NCBI GenBank assembly: GCA_013140575.1
Contig: JABFSN010000217.1
Location: 1-32,471 of the forward strand
Reading direction: 5' to 3'
Length of the DNA stretch: 32,471 nucleotides
DNA from: Phycisphaerales bacterium
Lineage (GTDB): Bacteria > Planctomycetota > Phycisphaerae > UBA1845
The notes under the pieces are model-generated. The model was given only the letters and a program-made list of their open reading frames with translations. It had not been told where the DNA came from and did no database searches. Positions 15,053 through 24,768 of this stretch are shown one piece after another (within the stretch, counting starts at the first letter, position 1; every line of letters begins with the position of its first letter). Position numbers and translations under genes: made by a program.

Positions 15053-17377
15053 ATGCGGAATGGGCGAGGTGCTGCGGTCGGGGCGGCCCTGTGGGCGGTG
15101 GTTTGCGCGGCGGGAACGGCGCTCGCCCAGCCGGGCGGCGCGGTCACGGAGATTCGTTTCGAGGGGGCGGAACGAAGCACGCGGGCCTACCTGGAAAGCG
15201 TGGTGCAAACACGGGTGGGCGAACCGTTTGACGCGGCGGTGGTCGATCAGGACGTGGTTCGGCTGCTGCAGACGGGCAAGTTTTCGTCCGTGACGTCGGA
15301 AGTCGTTCCGGGCGAGGGTGGCGCGGCCGCGGTCGTGTTTCGCGTTCGCGAGCGGACGCTGATCGCGTCCATCCAATTCGAGAACAACCGATATTTCAAC
15401 GAGAAGACGCTGCTGGGGCACGTGCAGGCCAAAGCGGGCGACCCAGTCGATGCGTTCGCCCTGCGTGAGGGGCGGGACAACATTCTGGAGGCGTATCGCG
15501 GGGCCGGTTTCGGTCGGGCAATCGTCGAGGTGGACACGGATCAGGCGCACGCCACGGGGCGGGTGGTGTATCGGATTGAGGAGGGCGAGCAGGTCCGGGT
15601 GCGTAAGGTGTTGTTCGAGGGGAATCAGCAGGTTGCGACGGCCGAGTTGAAGAAAAGGGTGCGGACGACGTCGGCGTTGTGGATTTTCCGGCCGGGGGTG
15701 TTCGATCCGGACGTGGCGGACGCGGACGCGGCGACGCTGCAGAGCTACTGCCGCGATCAGGGGTTTCTGGATGCGCGGGCGAGCTACCGCGTGGATGCGG
15801 GTAAGCGGCCGGGCGATCTGGCGGTGGTGTTCATGATTACCGAGGGGACGCCGTACGTCGTGGAAGCGGTACGGGTCACCGGGAACACGGTGTTCGGCAC
15901 GGAGGATATTCTGGGATCGTTCGCGACGCAGGCGGGGCTGGTGTTCAACCAGTCGCGGCTGGAGAAGGACGCGGAGGCGTTGCGGACGCGGTGCGGCGAC
16001 TACGGTTACATCTACGCGACGGTTCGGGCGTTGCGGGTTTTTTCGGCCACGCCGGGTTTCGTGGTGCTGACGTTCGAGGTCAACGAGGGCGAGCCGATGC
16101 GCGTGGGCCGGGTGGTGGTCCGCGGGAACGAGATGACGCAGGACAAGGTGGTGCGTCGGGCGTTGGATTTGTATCCCGAGGACACGTTCCGGATTACGCC
16201 GATGCGGAACGCGGAGCGCGACCTGCGTCAGACGCAGTTGTTCGAGGAGGTGTCGGTCACGCCGGTGGGTCAGGAGGCGGGTGTGCGGGACATCGTGGTG
16301 GACGTGAAGGAGTCCACGCGGCTGCGGGATTTCATTTTCGGATTCGGGGTGACCAGCGACAGCGGACTGGTGGGCAGCATCGTGCTGGATTACAAGAATT
16401 TCGACATATTCGACACGCCGCGCAGTTTTTCGGAGTTCATCAAGTTCCGGTCGTTCCGGGGGGCGGGTCAGCGGTTACGGTTGGAACTGCAACCCGGCAC
16501 GGAGTTAAACCGTTTCCGGATCGACTTCACCGAGCCCTATTGGCGCGATCAACCGGTGCGGTTCGACGTCAGCCTGTACCATTTCAACCGCGGGCGCGAG
16601 GGATGGGACGAACAACGGACGGGCGGCAGCGTGTCGTTCGGGCGGCGGCTGGAGAAGGGCATCGGACCGTGGGGGTGGTTGAAGGGCTGGTACGGCGAAG
16701 TTGCGTTCGGCGAAGAATATGTCGTGCTGGACGACGTGGACATATTCGACGACCGCAGCGTGCGCGACGTGCGCGGGGGGTCGTTGTTGTCGTCCGCGAA
16801 GCTGACGACGGTTCGGGATCGGACGGACAACCGGTGGATGCCGACGGAGGGCGACCGGTTGACGTTGAGTTACGAGCAGTTTCTGGGGGATTTCAATTTC
16901 GGCGTCGCGCACGCGCGGTACGCCAAGTACCACACGCTGTTCGTTGACGAGCAAGACCGCAAGTCAATCTTGTCGTGGCGGGTGGACGCGGGGGCCATCG
17001 CGGGCGAGGCACCGGTGTTCGAGAAACTGTATGCCGGCGGCATCGGTTCGTTGCGGGGGTTCGAGTTCCGCGGCATCGGGCCGCGCGGCGGTCTGGAGAA
17101 AGACCCGATCGGCGGCGACTACGCGCTGACCTCGAGCGTTGAGTACACGTTCCCGTTGGCCGCGGAGGTTTTGCGCGGCGTCGTGTTCACGGACATGGGC
17201 ACGGTGGAAGAGGATTTCGAGATCACGACGTGGCGGGCGGCGGTGGGCGTGGGATTGCGGTTCGAGATCGAGCTGTTCGGGCCGGTGCCGATTGAGCTGG
17301 ACTTGGCCGCACCGATTTCCAAGGATGGTGAAGACGACACTCGGGCGTTCAGCTTCTTCATCGGGGGTTCGTTTTAG
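15053..17377 (+). CDS. bamA: BamA, outer-membrane beta-barrel assembly protein
   Basis: 774 residues. A signal peptide (residues 1-25, ending ALAQ) is followed by successive POTRA repeats to about residue 420, for example EIRFEGAERSTRAYLESVV, VRKVLFEGNQQVATAELKKRV and VEAVRVTGNTVFGTEDIL. The Omp85 barrel follows, with the conserved loop-6 LRGFEFRG (Arg668) and a C-terminal Phe (FSFFIGGSF). BamA folds and inserts outer-membrane proteins, so the organism has a diderm envelope. The adjacent Skp/OmpH-type gene repeats the bamA-skp order of proteobacteria and supports BamA over TamA. The ribosome binding site is weak. Confidence 0.92.
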   Translation: MRNGRGAAVGAALWAVVCAAGTALAQPGGAVTEIRFEGAERSTRAYLESVVQTRVGEPFDAAVVDQDVVRLLQTGKFSSVTSEVVPGEGGAAAVVFRVRERTLIASIQFENNRYFNEKTLLGHVQAKAGDPVDAFALREGRDNILEAYRGAGFGRAIVEVDTDQAHATGRVVYRIEEGEQVRVRKVLFEGNQQVATAELKKRVRTTSALWIFRPGVFDPDVADADAATLQSYCRDQGFLDARASYRVDAGKRPGDLAVVFMITEGTPYVVEAVRVTGNTVFGTEDILGSFATQAGLVFNQSRLEKDAEALRTRCGDYGYIYATVRALRVFSATPGFVVLTFEVNEGEPMRVGRVVVRGNEMTQDKVVRRALDLYPEDTFRITPMRNAERDLRQTQLFEEVSVTPVGQEAGVRDIVVDVKESTRLRDFIFGFGVTSDSGLVGSIVLDYKNFDIFDTPRSFSEFIKFRSFRGAGQRLRLELQPGTELNRFRIDFTEPYWRDQPVRFDVSLYHFNRGREGWDEQRTGGSVSFGRRLEKGIGPWGWLKGWYGEVAFGEEYVVLDDVDIFDDRSVRDVRGGSLLSSAKLTTVRDRTDNRWMPTEGDRLTLSYEQFLGDFNFGVAHARYAKYHTLFVDEQDRKSILSWRVDAGAIAGEAPVFEKLYAGGIGSLRGFEFRGIGPRGGLEKDPIGGDYALTSSVEYTFPLAAEVLRGVVFTDMGTVEEDFEITTWRAAVGVGLRFEIELFGPVPIELDLAAPISKDGEDDTRAFSFFIGGSF

Positions 17378-17382
17378 GGGAA

Positions 17383-17398
17383 AGGCACGAAGGCACGA
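17383..17398 (+). repeat. 8-bp tandem repeat after bamA
   Basis: Two units of AGGCACGA, then degenerate purine-rich copies to about 17430. Same unit as after sufU. Confidence 0.6.
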
Positions 17399-17490
17399 AG
17401 CGGAAGGCAAGAGAGTACGGAAGCACGAACGAAAGACGACTGGCAGGAACAGCAGCGGATCCGATAATCCGAACGAAGTGGAGGACTGGT

Positions 17491-18108
17491 ATGACGACAT
17501 GGCTGGCGGCGGTGTGGATGGCGGCGGCGGTGATGGGACAGTCGCCGCCGGATGCGAAGGTGGCGGTGATCAATCTGGCCGTCGCATTCGAGCGATATCA
17601 GATGACCCGCGATCTGGAGGCGGTATTCGCCGAGCGGCGGGCGGCCGTGAAGGAACAGGGCAAGGCCCGTTCCGACGAGATCGACACCCTGCGCGCGGCG
17701 CTGGAACAGTTCAAACCCGGGACGGCCGATTTTCATGAACGCGAAGAGCAACTGGTGCGCAAGGAGATCGACTTCCAGGTGTGGCTGGAGGTGCAGGAAC
17801 GGCGGCTGAAGCTGGACCACAAACGCTGGCTGGAGACGATTTACGATCGCGTGGAAGCGACGGTCGCCCAATTGGCCAAGGAGCGGGGCATCGACCTGGT
17901 GCTGACCTACAGCGACCTGGTGGAGGACGCACCGGATTCGGTCGCGTTTCGCCAGCAGATTCTGCTACGCACGGTTATCTACGCCGATTCGCGGATTGAC
18001 CTGACCACGGACGTCGTGTCACTCCTCGATGCGGATTATCAGAGGCAGGGGGGCAAGGCCGGGCTGACGCTGGGTGAGGCGAATTCGAAAGTGCCGGGTG
18101 AGCCGTGA
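17491..18108 (+). CDS. OmpH/Skp-family periplasmic chaperone
   Basis: 205 residues. Short signal peptide (residues 1-16, ending VMG-Q), the family beta-strand VAVINLAVAFERYQM, then a long charged coiled coil (about 40-130, e.g. LEAVFAERRAAVKEQGKARSDEIDTL) and the IYDRVEATVAQLAKERGIDLVLTYSD segment that returns to the body. Skp-type trimers hold unfolded outer-membrane proteins in the periplasm for BamA. It follows bamA by 113 bases in the same direction. The tail after residue 185 is not conserved. Confidence 0.85.
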   Translation: MTTWLAAVWMAAAVMGQSPPDAKVAVINLAVAFERYQMTRDLEAVFAERRAAVKEQGKARSDEIDTLRAALEQFKPGTADFHEREEQLVRKEIDFQVWLEVQERRLKLDHKRWLETIYDRVEATVAQLAKERGIDLVLTYSDLVEDAPDSVAFRQQILLRTVIYADSRIDLTTDVVSLLDADYQRQGGKAGLTLGEANSKVPGEP

Positions 18109-18173: not shown

Positions 18174-18494
18174 CTAGTTGGACTGATAAAGCGCGGCTGC
18201 GGCCGCGGCGCGCGGCGATTCGTCGTGTATCTCGCGGATCGACCAACCGGCCGGGGGAAGTTCGACGAACGCGATCGCATCTCCGCGGATCAGCACGGCC
18301 TGCAACGTCCGCGATCCGGCCTGGTTCTCGACGGTCACGTCGCAGAGCAGAAGATACTCGTGGCCGAGCGTGCGGATGGCGTCGGCCGGCCGAATCTTGT
18401 TGTCCATGCCGACCGGGACGTGGTAGGTGCCGTGCATACGGTCGCCTGTGGTGAGCACGATGTTCAGTTCGCAGCATTTGGTGGGATTGCGCAT
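18174..18494 (-). CDS. Small conserved hypothetical protein, convergent with ompH
   Basis: 106 residues, predicted mostly beta: LNIVLTTGDRMHGTYHVP, RPADAIRTLGHEYLLLCDVTVE, LQAVLIRGDAIAFVELP. This alternation recalls small SH3-like proteins with an R-[LP]-[SA]-D motif (DUF6812-like), but I am not certain of the family. It is transcribed toward ompH with 65 bases between the stops. The start at 18494 has no clear ribosome binding site. No function assigned. Confidence 0.6.
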   Translation of the reverse strand: MRNPTKCCELNIVLTTGDRMHGTYHVPVGMDNKIRPADAIRTLGHEYLLLCDVTVENQAGSRTLQAVLIRGDAIAFVELPPAGWSIREIHDESPRAAAAAALYQSN

Positions 18495-19158: not shown

Positions 19159-19449
19159 ATGAGTAAGAAAGAGGCCAAAGTCAAATCGTCGATGGAGCTC
19201 GGCAAGGCCATCGCGTACCTGAACGACCTCGTCGCATCGCTCCGCGCGGGGACGGTGAGCATCGAGAACGGCGACGGCGTTGTTACCCTGCATCCGGAGA
19301 AGAATGTGAAAGTCGCGTTGGAAGCGACGCAAAAAGAGGATCGCGAGTCCATATCGCTCCGTATCGCGTGGAAGAAGCCCGACGCGGAATGCAAGGCGTC
19401 GCTGCGCATCAGCGCGCAGGACGCGGCGCACCAGAGTTGCGATCACTAG
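19159..19449 (+). CDS. Amphi-Trp domain protein 1 (GAK system)
   Basis: 96 residues, soluble, charged. The amphi-Trp pattern is visible: an N-terminal amphipathic helix (MELGKAIAYLNDLVASLRAG), then GTVSIENGDGVVTLHPEKNVKVALEA and ISLRIAWKKP with the conserved Trp71. The C-terminal tail ends in SCDH. Amphi-Trp proteins are small partners in the uncharacterised GAK cassette; their activity is unknown. Start supported by GAAGGAG, spacing 11. It is the first gene of six in the same direction; the spacer to the next gene is 206 bases. Confidence 0.82.
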   Translation: MSKKEAKVKSSMELGKAIAYLNDLVASLRAGTVSIENGDGVVTLHPEKNVKVALEATQKEDRESISLRIAWKKPDAECKASLRISAQDAAHQSCDH

Positions 19450-19655
19450 CGTATTGCCGAGCGTGAATGCCCAGGTGCGTGGCGGCGGTCGAAATCCAAC
19501 CCGCGCGACGGGCCGACGTGAACAGGCGGTCCGATGCGGCGTCGTCGCGACCCGGTGGCGAATCGGCCCGGGACTTGCGTCCGGCGTGCGGATACGCGAG
19601 CGGCATCCCCGGCGAGGCGGGTCACGAGCGGAATGGGTTACGAACGGAGCGTTTG

Positions 19656-20819
19656 ATGAGCCTCGGTGTGGCGGAACGGGATCAACGCAGGGCGCGGGCC
19701 GCCGACGCCGTCGGTGAGGAAATCACGGACTGGGACCGCCGCGCGTACCTGAAGATAATCTCGACGGAGCTTTCCGACGATCAGATTGCGCGGATCGTCG
19801 AGCCGCAGACGCTGCATCCGCGGCAGGAAGCCGTTCTGGCGGTGCACTGGCATCCGGAGTTCATCCCGCCGGACCTGATCCGCCGGCGGCTGGACGCCAT
19901 GTTCCCGAACCGATCGCAGGAATTGATCATCCCCACACAGCACAACATCCTGGTCGACTACGACGGGTATTCCGGCGTGGAGGTCGATTGCTTTTCAAGA
20001 TCTTTCAACCGCAAGGTGCAATTGCTGGTCCATTTCCGCACCGAGCGGGTGGCGCAGGCGACGGTGTTCCGGTCGATGCTCGAGCGTACCTTCCGTTACC
20101 GGGCGCGGCAGCTTTTCGAATTCATCGACACGCTGGTCGACGACGCGTACGAGGATCGCCTGCAGAAAGCGGCCGACCGCGCCGGCGCCGATGAGAATCT
20201 GGTCCGGTTCGTGCGCGTGCACGCGGCCAAGCTGTATCGCTTGTTTCTGGAATTCGAGTCAAAGACGCCGCCGGTGGCCATCCGCAACAAGATCCTGGTG
20301 CATTATTTCGAAACCCTGCGGTCGCGTTTCGATCCGCGCATGGTCAACCACGCGGAGATGCTCCTGCAGGCGGTCAAGGAGACCGTCAAGCACCATTTCA
20401 GCAACGAGTTCTTCTACGCGACGGAGGAAGTGATCGAAGAGGTCCGCGGGCTGGGCGGGTCCATCGTGGTGCCGCATCCCGAGCAATTCTGGCCCATCCT
20501 GCTGGCCGAGTACGACGTGGACGGTTACGAAGTCTGGAATCCGCAGTCGCAGGAATTCACCGAGTTCCTAATCCAGGTGGTCGGGCGTCAAAACAAGGCG
20601 CGAAAGCGCGGCGACAACCCCATCCTCATTTTCATGGGGGACGACTGCCACATGGGCGAGAAGGCCAAGGATCCGGAATTCCAGGATCCGGAGAAGGTCG
20701 GGCGGGAAGTGGGCGTGCAGCCGGCGTGGGACGATCTGGCCATTCGCAAGAGCCTGATCGTGGCCGGCGCCGACCGGCGAACGGTAATTGACGATTACAA
20801 GGCGCGGCTCGGCGCCTGA
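19656..20819 (+). CDS. PHP-domain metallohydrolase-like protein in the GAK-type operon
   Basis: 387 residues. PHP (polymerase and histidinol phosphatase) motifs are scattered as in that superfamily: HWH at 64-66, His96, Glu109, VVPHPEQFWP with His274, DGYEVWNPQSQ, and GDDCH with Asp330/His332. These would bind two or three metal ions for phosphoester hydrolysis. The middle (130-260) is a helical insertion with no recognised family. The start at 19656 is chosen for GGAG seven bases upstream; the frame extends to 19467 but that part is Arg-rich and overlaps no ribosome binding site. The phosphoesterase role is inferred; the substrate is unknown. Confidence 0.78.
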   Translation: MSLGVAERDQRRARAADAVGEEITDWDRRAYLKIISTELSDDQIARIVEPQTLHPRQEAVLAVHWHPEFIPPDLIRRRLDAMFPNRSQELIIPTQHNILVDYDGYSGVEVDCFSRSFNRKVQLLVHFRTERVAQATVFRSMLERTFRYRARQLFEFIDTLVDDAYEDRLQKAADRAGADENLVRFVRVHAAKLYRLFLEFESKTPPVAIRNKILVHYFETLRSRFDPRMVNHAEMLLQAVKETVKHHFSNEFFYATEEVIEEVRGLGGSIVVPHPEQFWPILLAEYDVDGYEVWNPQSQEFTEFLIQVVGRQNKARKRGDNPILIFMGDDCHMGEKAKDPEFQDPEKVGREVGVQPAWDDLAIRKSLIVAGADRRTVIDDYKARLGA

Positions 20820-20837
20820 AGACGGAGGCCCAGGATC

Positions 20838-21128
20838 ATGGCGGCGGACGAACAGGAATTCACCCACGAGTCTTATCAGGACCGTGAATCGATCGCGCGA
20901 TACCTGACCGCGCTGCGCGAGGGGCTGCAAAACGGCAAATTGCTGCTGGCCAGCAACGGCGAGCGGTTCGCGCTGGAACCGGCCACGCTGGTCAAGTTCG
21001 ACGTGGAGGCCAGGCAGAACCGCGAGCGGGCCCGGCTCGTGCTGAAATTAAGCTGGAAGCGGCAGAAGCCGGGCAGGCAGTTGCGGGTCGAGCCGCTGCT
21101 GATCGACGGGCAGGCGCCGCGCGAGTAA
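20838..21128 (+). CDS. Amphi-Trp domain protein 2 (GAK system)
   Basis: 96 residues, same architecture as the first copy: amphipathic helix (DRESIARYLTALREGLQNG), GKLLLASNGERFALEPATLVKFDVEA, and ARLVLKLSWKRQKPG with Trp73, then a tail ending EPLLIDGQ. It differs strongly from copy 1 in sequence, so the two are not a recent duplication and may have different partners. It starts 18 bases after the PHP gene with GGAGG upstream, and three bases separate its stop from the next start. Confidence 0.82.
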   Translation: MAADEQEFTHESYQDRESIARYLTALREGLQNGKLLLASNGERFALEPATLVKFDVEARQNRERARLVLKLSWKRQKPGRQLRVEPLLIDGQAPRE

Positions 21129-21131
21129 TTC

Positions 21132-22772
21132 ATGATCGCATTCGAGGGACTCGATCGGAACTTCCAGTTCCTCGTCCTTGAGGTGCGCCGCCAATTGGAC
21201 ACGACGCGCCGTCTGCTGAAGGCGCCCTCGCCGGCGCTGGTGCGTAAGGTATCGGCCCGCGATAATTATACGGACACGCTCAAGAGCCTCATCGAAAAGA
21301 AATGCGTCTCGTTTCTGCGGCACTCCCCGCAGACGGACAAGACTTCGGCCAACGCCGTCGCTGCGATCAACGTCGCCACCATTAACCTGGAGCGCATCGC
21401 GGATTTCTGCGTCAACGTCGCCGCCCACGTCGAGAAGCTCATCGACAAGAAGTTCATCACCCGTTTCGACTTCGAACCCTATTTCGCCGAATTGCAGACG
21501 GTCATGCCGCTGATCGTGGATGCGCTCTCGCAGGCCGAGGCGTCCATCGGGCTGCGCATCTGCCGTAGCGAGCGGACCCTCGACGAACTGTACGACGCCG
21601 ATTTCAAGCGCATCCGCGACGCACTGCGCACCGGCCGGGACACTGACGACCTGCTCTGCTGCCTGTACATCGTGCACTATCTGGAACGCATGGGCGACTC
21701 GCTGCTCAACATCGGCGAGGCCGTCCTGTTCGCGGCCACCGGGGAGAAACTGAAACTCCACGAGTATCAGCAGCTTCGCGACACGCTGGTCGCCCAGGAT
21801 GCCGACGCGTCGGTCGATGAATACGACATCGATTTCCGATGGGAGACGCGCTCGGGATGCCGTATCGCCAGGGTGGAGGAGAAATCGCGCGGCAACGGCG
21901 AGCCGGACGCGATCTTCAAAAAAGGCGAAGCGTCCAAAATCCGCGCCGAACGCGACAACATCATCCGCTGGCAGACGCTTCTGCCCGGACTGGTCCCGAC
22001 CATATTGGAATATCGTGAACTGGAAGGCGACGCCGCGCTGCTGCTGACGTTTCTGGACGGCTTCACCCTGCGCGATCTGGCCCTCAGCGGCAAACGCGAC
22101 GCCCTGTCGGCGGCGCTGGGCACGCTGGGGCGGACGCTGGAGACCGCCTGGACGCGGAGCCGCGCCCCCGAACCCGCTCAAGCCCGGTTCCTGGGTCAGA
22201 TTCAGTCGCGGCTCGACGACGTGTTTCAGTTGCACCCCGATTTCGCGGACGATCACTTCGAAGTCGGTGACCTGGAACTCGCCTCACTCGAGGAGTTGCT
22301 CCAGGCCGGCAAGGCGCTCGACGATTCGCTGGCGGCGCCGTTCCACGTGCTGGTGCACGGCGACTTTAACGCCGACAACGTCATCTACCACGAGCGCAGC
22401 GACCGCATCCACTTTATTGATCTGTACCGGTCGGGGATGAACGACTACGTGCAGGACGTTTCCGTCTTTTTGGTGTCCAACTTCCGCGTGCCGGTGGCCG
22501 ACGCGGGCATCCGCGAACTGCTCAATTTCGCGGCCGTGCGGATGTTCGAGTTCGCCCGGACGTTTGCCGTCCAAAACGGGGACGAGACGTTTGAAGCGCG
22601 GCTGGCGCTGGGCCTGGCCCGGTCCTTCATCACCTCGACGCGGTTCGAAATGGACCGCGAATTCGCCAGGCGCATGTTTCAGCGCGGCATGTATCTGCTA
22701 CGCACCATTGTGAACGCGTCGCCCTCGACGCTCGATGGTTTTCGGATCAGCCCGGAAGTGCTGGTCGGCTGA
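21132..22772 (+). CDS. PhoU-like domain fused to an APH-type kinase
   Basis: 546 residues with two parts. Residues 1-215 are all-helical with two PhoU-type motifs, NLERIADFCVNV (Glu87, Asp91) and YLERMGDSLLNI (Glu185, Asp189), spaced as in tandem PhoU three-helix units that bind metal. Residues about 235-546 are an aminoglycoside phosphotransferase/choline-kinase fold: nucleotide-binding lysine in AIFKKGEASKIRAERD (263/264), catalytic loop HVLVHGDFNADNVIYH (Asp411, Asn416) and the metal-binding Asp430 in IHFIDLYRSG. Kinase residues look complete, so activity is likely. The fusion joins phosphate-signalling helices to a small-molecule or protein kinase; the substrate is unknown. Confidence 0.8.
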   Translation: MIAFEGLDRNFQFLVLEVRRQLDTTRRLLKAPSPALVRKVSARDNYTDTLKSLIEKKCVSFLRHSPQTDKTSANAVAAINVATINLERIADFCVNVAAHVEKLIDKKFITRFDFEPYFAELQTVMPLIVDALSQAEASIGLRICRSERTLDELYDADFKRIRDALRTGRDTDDLLCCLYIVHYLERMGDSLLNIGEAVLFAATGEKLKLHEYQQLRDTLVAQDADASVDEYDIDFRWETRSGCRIARVEEKSRGNGEPDAIFKKGEASKIRAERDNIIRWQTLLPGLVPTILEYRELEGDAALLLTFLDGFTLRDLALSGKRDALSAALGTLGRTLETAWTRSRAPEPAQARFLGQIQSRLDDVFQLHPDFADDHFEVGDLELASLEELLQAGKALDDSLAAPFHVLVHGDFNADNVIYHERSDRIHFIDLYRSGMNDYVQDVSVFLVSNFRVPVADAGIRELLNFAAVRMFEFARTFAVQNGDETFEARLALGLARSFITSTRFEMDREFARRMFQRGMYLLRTIVNASPSTLDGFRISPEVLVG

Positions 22773-22790
22773 CTTGCGGAGCCCGGACCC

Positions 22791-23675
22791 ATGCTGAACG
22801 TCGGCGTCGTCGGTTTGAAAGACGGTTGGTCGACGCAGCAACTCCTGCACGCCCTCGAGCGCCACGGCGCCGCGGTCCGTATGATCGACATCGGCGCCAC
22901 CCGCCTCGACCTGCACGCCCGGCGCGGGTACTGCGGCGAGTTCGATCTCGGCGAACTCGACGCGCTGGTGGTCAAGAAACTGGGCGAAAGCTACTGCCGC
23001 GAACTGGGCGATCGGCTCGCCTGCCTGCGGATGATCGAGGGCTTCGGGGTGCGTGTCTTTTCACGTCCGGTCTCCATGAGACGCGTGCTCGACCGCCTCA
23101 GTTGCACGGTCTCCCTCTCGCTGGCCGACGTCCCCATCCCGCCGACCGTGATTACCGAATGCGCCGAAGAGGCCGTCGCCGCCGTCCGCAGGTTTGGCAA
23201 GGCCGTTCTGAAGCCGCTGTACTCCTCGAAGGCCCGCGGTATGATTGTGGTCGACGGCGCCGATCATGCCCGGGACGCCGTCGTCGCCTTTCAGACCGCC
23301 GGAAATGGGACGATCTACGTTCAGAAGCTACTGGAACTGCCCGGGCGCGATCTGGGATTGGTTTTCTGCGGCGGGCGCTTCGTCAAGTGCTACGCCCGCG
23401 TCGGACGCTCGGGTTCGTGGAACACCACCGTGCACGCCGGCGGCCGATACGAACCCCACGAACCGTCGGACGCGTTGATCGCACTCGCCCGTCGGGCGCA
23501 GGCGCCTTTCGATCTCGATTTCACCTGCGTCGATATCGCCGAGACCGCGGACGGTCCGGTCGTGTTTGAAGTCTCCGCCTTCGGTGGATTCCGCGGGTTG
23601 TGGGAGGCGTGGTCCTTCGACGCGGCCGACGTCTACGCCGCCCATGTCATCAGGAGTTTGTCCGATGATGGCTGA
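22791..23675 (+). CDS. ATP-grasp ligase of the GAK system
   Basis: 294 residues, RimK-like ATP-grasp fold. N-terminal Rossmann-type domain (MLNVGVVGLKDGWSTQQLL), then ATP-binding segments FGKAVLKPLYSSKARGM (Lys141), TIYVQKLLELPGRDLGLVF and the metal-binding end VDIAETADGPVVFEVSAFGGFRGL with Glu260. The usual EVN is EVS here (Ser262 in place of Asn). ATP-grasp enzymes join a carboxylate to an amine or thiol through an acyl phosphate; the substrate in GAK systems is unknown. It follows the kinase fusion by 18 bases and its end overlaps the HprK-like gene by 11 bases. Confidence 0.88.
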   Translation: MLNVGVVGLKDGWSTQQLLHALERHGAAVRMIDIGATRLDLHARRGYCGEFDLGELDALVVKKLGESYCRELGDRLACLRMIEGFGVRVFSRPVSMRRVLDRLSCTVSLSLADVPIPPTVITECAEEAVAAVRRFGKAVLKPLYSSKARGMIVVDGADHARDAVVAFQTAGNGTIYVQKLLELPGRDLGLVFCGGRFVKCYARVGRSGSWNTTVHAGGRYEPHEPSDALIALARRAQAPFDLDFTCVDIAETADGPVVFEVSAFGGFRGLWEAWSFDAADVYAAHVIRSLSDDG

Positions 23676-24768
23676 ACACAAGCTCGTACAAACGCTGGCC
23701 GACGACGTCCGCACGCGGTTCCCCACGGATCATACGCTCGACCTCAAATTCGAAGATTGCTCCATGCGCGTCCACGGCAACTCGGCCGCGTTGATCGACC
23801 GGCTCCGCGAATATTACGGACGGTTCGTCACCCGCGAGCCCGGCCGACAGTTCCAGATTGCGGTTCTCGAATCGCCCGCGTTGCCCGTGGATATCGATTT
23901 CAATCCTGTGTCGCGTCGCGACCTCCGCGCCGCGCTGAAGGAGGAAATCGCTGACCTGCCCGACGGCCGCATCATTCGCAAGTCGCGCACCGGGATGGTC
24001 TTCCTGATCGGCGACGACGTCCACGTCGCGATCGGACCGTGCGCCCGGAACCCCAACCAGGTGGTCAACTTCATCGACAACCGGTTCATCGAGTGGCGGC
24101 TGCGTTGCGGCGGGCTGCTGCTGCACGCGTCGGGAGTGTCGTTGGACAACGCCGGGCTGGCCATCGCCGGACCCGCCGGACGCGGGAAATCGACCCTGGC
24201 GCTGGAAATGCTGGAACGGGGATTCGATTACGTCAGCAACGACCGCGTCATCACCGACAAGCACCTGCCTTCGTCGCTCATGTACGGCGTGCCCAAGCGC
24301 CCGCGGGTCAATCCCGGCACGCTTCTTCATCACCGGCGGCTGTCCGAAATGCTCGAGCCGGGTGACCGCGATCGGCTGAACCGCATGTCCGCGGACGAGC
24401 TGTGGCATCTCGAAGAAAAACGCGACGTCGACGTCGAACGCTGGTTCCCCCGCTGCAAACACGTGCTGCTCGCCCGCCTCAGCGCCGTGGTCGTCCTCAA
24501 CTGGCAACGCGACGCCGGACCACTGCGCCTGGCCCCCGTGACGTTGAGCGACCGCACCGAAATCCTCGAACTCATCGTCAAGGATCCCGGCGTGTTCCAC
24601 CCCGGGCGGCAAGCATCGTCCTCGCCCGAACAAAACGTCCGCCGATATCAGGACGTCCTTCGCGAATGCCCGGTGTGCGAAATCACCGGCGGCGTGGACT
24701 TCGCCGCTGCGGCCGCCGCCTGCCACGATTTCCTACGCCGCCCGACGACAAGGCCGGTGTGTTGCTAG
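23665..24768 (+). CDS. HprK-related kinase B (GAK system)
   Basis: 367 residues. The C-terminal half resembles HPr kinase/phosphorylase: GGLLLHASGV (His154), P-loop GPAGRGKST (Lys175) and SNDRVITDK with Asp193. The N-terminal 140 residues do not resemble the HprK N-domain. HprK phosphorylates a serine of HPr; no HPr gene is seen here, so the target is probably another protein, perhaps an amphi-Trp partner. CAGGAG lies eight bases before the ATG at 23665, which is 11 bases inside the ATP-grasp gene, so translation is coupled. It is the last gene of the cassette. Confidence 0.88.
   Translation: MMAEHKLVQTLADDVRTRFPTDHTLDLKFEDCSMRVHGNSAALIDRLREYYGRFVTREPGRQFQIAVLESPALPVDIDFNPVSRRDLRAALKEEIADLPDGRIIRKSRTGMVFLIGDDVHVAIGPCARNPNQVVNFIDNRFIEWRLRCGGLLLHASGVSLDNAGLAIAGPAGRGKSTLALEMLERGFDYVSNDRVITDKHLPSSLMYGVPKRPRVNPGTLLHHRRLSEMLEPGDRDRLNRMSADELWHLEEKRDVDVERWFPRCKHVLLARLSAVVVLNWQRDAGPLRLAPVTLSDRTEILELIVKDPGVFHPGRQASSSPEQNVRRYQDVLRECPVCEITGGVDFAAAAAACHDFLRRPTTRPVCC

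What the first reader, a model, noticed from the sequence alone, without database searches (positions are those of the whole stretch)
19159..24768. GAK-type cassette extended with a PHP hydrolase and a PhoU-kinase fusion
Six co-directional genes with tight spacing (18, 3, 18 and -11 bases after the PHP gene) combine two amphi-Trp proteins, an ATP-grasp ligase and an HprK-related kinase, the defining set of the uncharacterised GAK system as I recall it from protein family databases. The CofD-like and XXXCH proteins that I associate with GAK loci are absent; a PHP-type phosphoesterase and a PhoU-APH fusion are present instead. The locus thus has two kinases, a likely phosphatase, a ligase and two small possible substrate or carrier proteins, which hints at a phosphorylation-controlled modification pathway with no assigned product.
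Basis: partly seen in the sequence, partly recalled or inferred. Interest (0 to 1): 0.88.

Follow-up and report, generated by a model that had tools for sequence, protein, structure and literature searches.

The report
PhoU-kinase GAK gene cassette, phosphoesterase subtype
A six-gene bacterial cassette of unknown function, found in many bacterial phyla, turns out to have a hidden standard part (a kinase fused to a phosphate-signalling type domain) and one of two alternative phosphatase modules, which makes a poorly described system testable.

Summary
The six genes are real and correctly named: two amphi-Trp proteins, a PHP-fold phosphoesterase, a PhoU-APH fusion, the GAK ATP-grasp ligase and HprK-related kinase B. 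This is a GAK locus, but "extended" is wrong. PhoU-APH is a standard part: 82 of 83 GAK loci studied carry it, 81 directly before the ligase. NCBIfam gives it no GAK name; RefSeq calls it a phosphotransferase. PHP and CofD are not alternatives: 28 loci have both. What alternates with PHP (44 loci) is a histidine phosphatase plus calcineurin-like phosphoesterase (27 loci, plus one cut). No locus has both modules, and the genomes searched whole agree. The swap is one ancient event. Among 392 sampled genomes of the phylum, PhoU-APH adjoins an amphi-Trp gene in 8 of 8, even where ligase or HprK-B is missing. Best reading: a PhoU-gated kinase, an amphi-Trp partner and a phosphoesterase run a phosphorylation cycle tied to RimK-type ligation; substrate unknown. 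Stand-alone PhoU genes near 5 loci hint at phosphate. The window's genome shows no CofD-like protein and no XXXCH protein over cut-off.

The parts
19159..19449 (+). amphi-Trp protein, type B (not the one before PhoU-APH)
   Evidence: TIGR04354 60.1 bits; classed B by position
19467..20819 (+). PHP-fold phosphoesterase with a helical insert; real start probably 19656
   Evidence: no Pfam/NCBIfam model; model pLDDT 85; PHP fold, Z 15.6 to 3o0f, 14.8 to RNase AM 9etk, 14.1 to 2yb1; metal-ligand type residues kept in 35-36 of 36 rows
20838..21128 (+). amphi-Trp protein, type A, next to PhoU-APH; FxxESxQD motif before the helix
   Evidence: TIGR04354 61.3 bits; predicted helix plus four strands; motif Ser in 91% of 44 A-type copies
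21132..22772 (+). PhoU domain (about residues 10-206) fused to an APH-fold kinase (about 240-460)
   Evidence: PF01895, PF01636; kinase residues K263, E273, H409, D411, N416, D430 in 54 of 54 rows
22791..23675 (+). GAK ATP-grasp ligase, RimK/MptN/LysX relative
   Evidence: TIGR04356 387 bits; MptN 142 bits, below its cut-off 350; nearest solved chains by sequence LysX and RimK type
23665..24768 (+). HprK-related kinase B
   Evidence: TIGR04355 384 bits; P-loop GxGKST in 66 of 66; Asn in place of the first Asp of the HprK Asp-Asp pair in 65 of 66

Best explanation
The locus is a GAK cassette of the PHP subtype. Its core is a kinase whose APH-fold catalytic half is probably gated by its PhoU half (sensing phosphate, metal or a partner protein), working with amphi-Trp protein A as docking or substrate-presenting partner. 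A phosphoesterase (PHP here; a histidine phosphatase plus calcineurin-like enzyme in the other subtype) removes or trims the phosphate. The RimK/MptN-type ligase and HprK-related kinase B then add an amino acid and a second phosphate to the same small molecule or protein. Shown: gene content, recurrence, conserved catalytic residues, PHP fold of the model, exclusive phosphoesterase modules. Inferred: gating, partner role of amphi-Trp, order of steps, that all enzymes share one substrate.
For: PhoU-APH in 82 of 83 GAK loci, directly before the ligase in 81. Of 392 sampled genomes of the phylum 8 have PhoU-APH, and in 8 of 8 it adjoins an amphi-Trp gene: G166 without ligase and HprK-B at the locus, G191 and G164 with ligase but without HprK-B, G273 cut at the contig end. 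Two phosphoesterase modules that never co-occur: 44 versus 28 loci, 0 both; PHP absent in 21 of 21 histidine-phosphatase-type genomes searched whole and in G104 and G203; in 35 PHP genomes 31 without and 4 with only 20-30 bit matches to the calcineurin-like family. Catalytic residues of kinase, PHP and HprK-B P-loop kept. Ligase nearest RimK, LysX and MptN. A stand-alone PhoU gene lies near the cassette in 5 loci: L109 between two cassette genes; L052 and L098 with an ABC ATPase gene before it, L052 and L085 with a response-regulator gene beside it, L031/L054 after a PBP-type gene.
Against: No substrate, product or phenotype is known. The swap of modules is a single change on the tree, so exclusivity is one event and weak proof of equal function. 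Adjacent genes need not share a substrate. HprK-B carries Asn where HprK has Asp and is missing from 10 of 83 loci, some cut. Flanking genes (106 of 122 collected) share no common partner, and 78 of 83 loci show no stand-alone PhoU in the stretch held.
Confidence: 0.45

Rival explanations
1. Biosynthesis of a cofactor-like compound in the manner of F420 or methanopterin: the CofD-like protein makes a phosphodiester or binds a nucleotide sugar, the MptN-like ligase adds glutamate, kinases and phosphatases prepare intermediates.
For: CofD_rel_GAK in 53 of 83 loci; ligase scores 142 bits on MptN; 8 of 9 searched genomes of the other subtype whose locus lacks CofD have it elsewhere.
Against: No CofD-like match in the window's genome, and none over cut-off in 9 of 9 further PHP-type genomes searched whose locus lacks it (7 without a match, L054 and L079 with about 78-79 bits under cut-off 340). 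In G107 a CofD-like gene stands with one amphi-Trp gene and no other GAK part in the 5 kb read, so it is not a fixed step.
Confidence: 0.2
2. Nucleotide or RNA 5'-end chemistry: the phosphoesterases act on dinucleoside polyphosphates, 3',5'-bisphosphates or capped RNA, and the kinases and ligase make or attach the modified nucleotide.
For: PHP is structurally near 3o0f, RNase AM and 2yb1; RNase AM removes FAD caps (passages of PMC9410882); the alternative enzyme's best NCBIfam hit is the symmetrical bis(5'-nucleosyl)-tetraphosphatase at 22 bits, and the Nudix gene hits MutT and RNA pyrophosphohydrolase models at 24-25 bits.
Against: All these profile scores are far below cut-offs; PHP, Nudix and calcineurin-like families are broad; no result ties the ligase to nucleotides.
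Confidence: 0.15
3. A PTS-like switch: HprK-related kinase B phosphorylates amphi-Trp as HprK does HPr or Crh, and the phosphatases reverse it.
For: HprK relationship; amphi-Trp size; CofD-like, Nudix and SixA-like partners recall the yvcI-yvcK-crh setting (recalled; one search found no mention of yvcI or crh in the one paper looked at).
Against: Predicted amphi-Trp fold is one helix plus four strands, not the HPr order (HPr order recalled); Asn replaces the first Asp of the HprK Asp-Asp pair in 65 of 66; the A-type Ser motif persists in G166, G191 and G164, which have no HprK-B over cut-off.
Confidence: 0.12

Closest known systems
GAK system of NCBIfam (TIGR04354-TIGR04358)
   Same: amphi-Trp, ATP-grasp and HprK-related kinase B all over curated cut-offs
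   Different: no CofD-like match in the genome, no XXXCH protein over cut-off; carries PHP and PhoU-APH, for which no GAK-named model was hit in that library
RNase AM / CV1693 type PHP phosphoesterases
   Same: PHP barrel, Z 14.1-15.6, mostly over about 240 residues
   Different: 14-18% identity, a long helical insert, no match to any Pfam model
RimK, LysX and MptN ligases
   Same: same ATP-grasp family, 142 bits on MptN, 99 on rimK_fam; LysX and RimK type nearest solved chains by sequence
   Different: below the curated cut-offs of those families; own family TIGR04356
HPr kinase/phosphorylase
   Same: P-loop and following Asp-Arg
   Different: only about 50 residues align; Asn in place of the first Asp; amphi-Trp is not HPr-like by predicted fold
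PhoU and APH kinases
   Same: PhoU and APH profile hits; best solved matches by sequence 4q25 PhoU and, weakly, AphA1
   Different: the two are fused; scores below the NCBIfam PhoU and aminoglycoside kinase cut-offs, so not a resistance gene by those models

Membership tests
GAK system | HprK-related kinase B over cut-off | tested here: met
   384 bits, cut-off 200
GAK system | GAK ATP-grasp over cut-off | tested here: met
   387 bits, cut-off 300
GAK system | amphi-Trp protein over cut-off | tested here: met
   two, 60.1 and 61.3 bits, cut-off 31
GAK system | CofD-like and XXXCH proteins: frequent companions, not part of the acronym (as recalled) and not treated as defining here | tested here: not met
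   no TIGR04357 match in the genome; best TIGR04358 match 26 bits under cut-off 40, in a cytochrome-like ORF. CofD is also missing from 30 of 83 loci and XXXCH from 67 of 83, contig-cut loci included
PHP phosphoesterases | PHP barrel fold | tested here: met
   Foldseek E 1.5e-5 to 3e0f and Z up to 15.6, on a predicted model
PHP phosphoesterases | match to a Pfam PHP profile | tested here: not met
   no Pfam family up to E 1; none up to E 0.5 for the relative in L031. Called PHP by fold, not by sequence profile
PHP phosphoesterases | conserved His/Asp/Glu positions of metal-ligand type | tested here: met
   HxH and further His, Glu, Asp in 35-36 of 36; not superposed on metals
HPr kinase/phosphorylase | P-loop | tested here: met
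   66 of 66
HPr kinase/phosphorylase | Asp-Asp pair after the P-loop, first Asp the catalytic base (role recalled) | tested here: not met
   Asn-Asp in 65 of 66; not filed as HPr kinase
HPr-like substrate (amphi-Trp) | HPr strand-helix order (recalled) | tested here: not met
   helix then four strands in a predicted model, pLDDT 86
aminoglycoside kinases | curated APH cut-offs | tested here: not met
   42 bits against 400, 39 against 205
PhoU | PhoU domain profile | tested here: met
   PF01895 68 bits over 23.5; the full-length equivalog TIGR02135 is not reached, 66.8 of 130
GAK system | enzyme activities | not testable with these tools

The most novel reading that the evidence does not exclude
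The GAK system is misnamed after its accessory parts. Its real core is a PhoU-gated kinase with an amphi-Trp partner, on which exchangeable modules are mounted (PHP, or histidine phosphatase plus calcineurin-like enzyme with Nudix; ligase; HprK-B; CofD with its own amphi-Trp). It would be a widespread, self-contained route that writes and erases an unknown phosphorylated and amino-acylated compound in response to a phosphate-linked signal. (Raised from 0.30 to 0.33 after one search showed stand-alone PhoU genes near 5 loci.)
Probability: 0.33. Interest if true: 0.82.

Novelty: new variant of a known kind. Interest (0 to 1): 0.6.

Why it matters
As far as the held library shows, the GAK system exists only as profile names: searches for its names and accessions found no paper, a third found one phage paper with a single 'XXXCH domain' mention (listing only), and a search on PhoU, aminoglycoside phosphotransferase and ATP-grasp listed four papers, none with the PhoU term (listing only). 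Showing that a PhoU-kinase fusion is a near-constant part, that two phosphoesterase modules exclude each other, and that the kinase plus amphi-Trp pair persists without ligase or HprK-B gives a first concrete handle: which proteins to mix, which genes to delete, and in which culturable hosts.

Tried and rejected
HPr-like fold of amphi-Trp: rejected on the predicted topology. Fold libraries gave nothing significant for it (best Foldseek E 1.5; best Z 2.8 to GnsA); this does not prove a new fold. Amphi-Trp against solved sequences gave designed Ig-like strands, cullins and other weak hits, taken as chance. Carrier-protein idea after LysX/LysW: the amphi-Trp C-termini printed share no common end, so not pursued. 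Ser12 of the A-type as a phosphosite: kept only as a lead, since the same residues fit a helix-capping box (inference) and G273 has Ala there. Repeated independent swaps of PHP for the histidine phosphatase module: rejected, one change on the tree. A common flanking gene: 106 of the 122 nearest flanking genes were scanned (the 16 left out were long or near-duplicate, to keep the residue limit); the commonest family, CBS, is in 8. A link to phosphate transport was first set aside, then partly supported (5 loci). Defence system: no PADLOC match for the six proteins. Phage carriage: the ligase finds only cyanophage genes at under 60% identity, 16 records of which 10 were listed, annotated mostly as S6 modification enzymes. 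A 22-bit match of one PHP relative to an effector model with cut-off 300 is taken as chance. Sigma-70-like promoters: none found; terminator-like sites 4 against 5.9 expected.
Full report
What is there. The window holds six + strand genes at 19159-24768. Two are amphi-Trp proteins, one the GAK ATP-grasp enzyme and one HprK-related kinase B, all over NCBIfam's curated cut-offs. The fourth gene is a PhoU domain fused to an APH-fold kinase. The second gene matches no family model, but a model built from an alignment of 36 sequences, the window's included (pLDDT 85), has the PHP fold, nearest to 3o0f (Z 15.6), RNase AM (Z 14.8) and 2yb1 with Mn, AMP and phosphate (Z 14.1). The window is a whole contig of an unnamed 5.05 Mb assembly; its nearest named relatives in the cassette tree are Phycisphaerae MAGs, so it is probably a planctomycete (inference).

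How the set was made. 

Content of GAK loci (of 83). Ligase 83 (by construction), PhoU-APH 82 (the missing one, L095, is cut at a contig end and keeps a fragment), amphi-Trp 74 (the nine without are each cut near the cassette on at least one side), HprK-B 73, CofD-like 53, PHP 44, histidine phosphatase 28 (27 with the calcineurin-like enzyme; L113 is cut), Nudix 19, XXXCH 16, SixA-like 15. PhoU-APH lies directly before the ligase in 81; in L091 CofD lies between. PHP and the histidine phosphatase module never share a locus. Eleven loci have neither; eight of these reach a contig end beside the cassette, L103 ends about 0.45 kb after it, and L065 and L110 are not cut. L110's genome carries a PHP gene elsewhere. 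XXXCH occurs only with PHP (16 of 16), Nudix never with PHP.

Genome-wide checks. Of 25 genomes whose locus lacks PHP, 24 lack it everywhere, among them all 21 with the histidine phosphatase module. Of 35 PHP genomes, 31 have no match to the calcineurin-like family and 4 have only 20-30 bit partial matches. On a tree of 82 PhoU-APH plus ligase rows the two modules need one change, so this is a deep split into two subtypes, not repeated exchange; it supports but does not prove equal function. CofD: 18 genomes whose locus lacks it and 3 positive controls were searched. The controls were found. Of nine of the other subtype, eight have CofD elsewhere over cut-off and L104 only a 34-bit match; of nine of the PHP subtype none is over cut-off. 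Six further PHP loci without CofD (L037, L047, L055, L084, L090, L096) were not searched. The window's genome, 96% complete, has none.

The core. In 392 sampled genomes of the phylum HprK-B is over cut-off in 4, the PHP family occurs in 3, PhoU-APH in 8 at E 1e-30 and amphi-Trp in 27 at E 0.001, 24 over cut-off. All 8 PhoU-APH genes adjoin an amphi-Trp gene, while 19 genomes have amphi-Trp without PhoU-APH, so amphi-Trp has other roles too. G166 has PHP, amphi-Trp and PhoU-APH followed by a cytidylate kinase gene, no ligase; G191 and G164 have the ligase but no HprK-B at the locus, G191 also a distant calcineurin-like match; G273 ends at the contig edge. These are draft genomes, so missing genes may lie unassembled. 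In G107 a CofD-like gene stands with one amphi-Trp gene and none of the other parts sought in the 5 kb read. Amphi-Trp proteins fall by position into A (before PhoU-APH, 44) and B (57); the nearest relative in another locus is of the same class for 39 of 44 and 55 of 57. A has a motif FxxESxQD before its helix, Ser in 91%. Of ten stretches with amphi-Trp genes away from PhoU-APH, nine gave a readable match and none has the motif.

Phosphate hint. A stand-alone PhoU gene lies near 5 of the 83 loci: inside the cassette of L109; upstream in L052, L085 and L098, with an ABC ATPase gene before it in L052 and L098 and a response-regulator gene beside it in L052 and L085; and about 5 kb downstream in L054, after a PBP-type gene seen in its duplicate L031. 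The ABC genes were not shown to be PstB. The other loci show none in the stretch held.

Catalysis. In 54 PhoU-APH rows the kinase residues K263, E273, H409, D411, N416 and D430 do not vary. In 66 HprK-B rows the P-loop does not vary, but the residue aligned with the first Asp of the HprK pair is Asn in 65; that this Asp is the catalytic base in Lactobacillus casei is recalled. HPr-kinase relatives that phosphorylate a C-terminal Ser of lasso peptides are known (passages of PMC8498205), so such kinases can serve other substrates. The calcineurin-like enzyme keeps GDxxDKG, GNHD and HGH type motifs in the consensus of 17 rows.

Interpretation. The tightest pair is PhoU-APH with amphi-Trp A; phosphoesterase, ligase, HprK-B, CofD with B, and XXXCH are layered on it. 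I read this as a kinase gated by its PhoU half, presented with its substrate by amphi-Trp A, opposed by a phosphoesterase and coupled to a RimK-type ligation. The gating, the shared substrate and the order are inference. Rivals are a cofactor pathway, nucleotide or RNA-end chemistry, and a PTS-like switch; their weights are given in their own section.

Known or new. GAK exists as NCBIfam profiles; no paper on it was found under its names (one library only). RefSeq labels the PhoU-APH gene in three plasmid-borne cassettes 'phosphotransferase' or 'aminoglycoside phosphotransferase family protein', while naming its neighbours GAK. The window is thus a new variant of a known, uncharacterised kind, and the finding about the whole kind is that PhoU-APH belongs to it and that it comes in two phosphoesterase subtypes.

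Noticed in passing
L132 (NZ_CP015232.1, 94129-113685), L131, L133: Cassettes with PhoU-APH, ligase, HprK-B, histidine phosphatase, metallophosphoesterase and amphi-Trp lie on plasmids of Rhodobacterales; three of five plasmid records with PhoU-APH were opened.
   Followed up: partly
L109 4774-5436; L052 2582-3268; L085 1134-2003; L098 2436-3107; L031 17126-17788: Stand-alone PhoU genes in or near GAK cassettes, some beside ABC ATPase, response-regulator or PBP-type genes.
   Followed up: partly
L046 and L066: An 'Alphaproteobacteria' MAG contig falls inside the Phycisphaerae clade and a 'Halobacteria' MAG contig inside the gammaproteobacterial clade of the cassette tree; mis-binning or transfer.
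   Followed up: no
G000:C159:35731-35931 (L150 2214-2756): The sub-cut-off XXXCH match lies in an ORF that ends with a CxxCH motif, like a small c-type cytochrome; the XXXCH domain may derive from such a protein (inference).
   Followed up: no
18174-18494, minus strand: Small 106-aa ORF upstream of the cassette with a weak LSM-like match, below cut-off.
   Followed up: no
15053-18108: BamA and an OmpH-like gene lie just upstream of the cassette.
   Followed up: no
L141 2427-3942: CofD-like GAK protein paired with one amphi-Trp gene without other GAK parts in the 5 kb read.
   Followed up: partly
L106 and L107: One Desulfonatronospira MAG carries two GAK loci, one with HprK-B turned to the other strand.
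   Followed up: no
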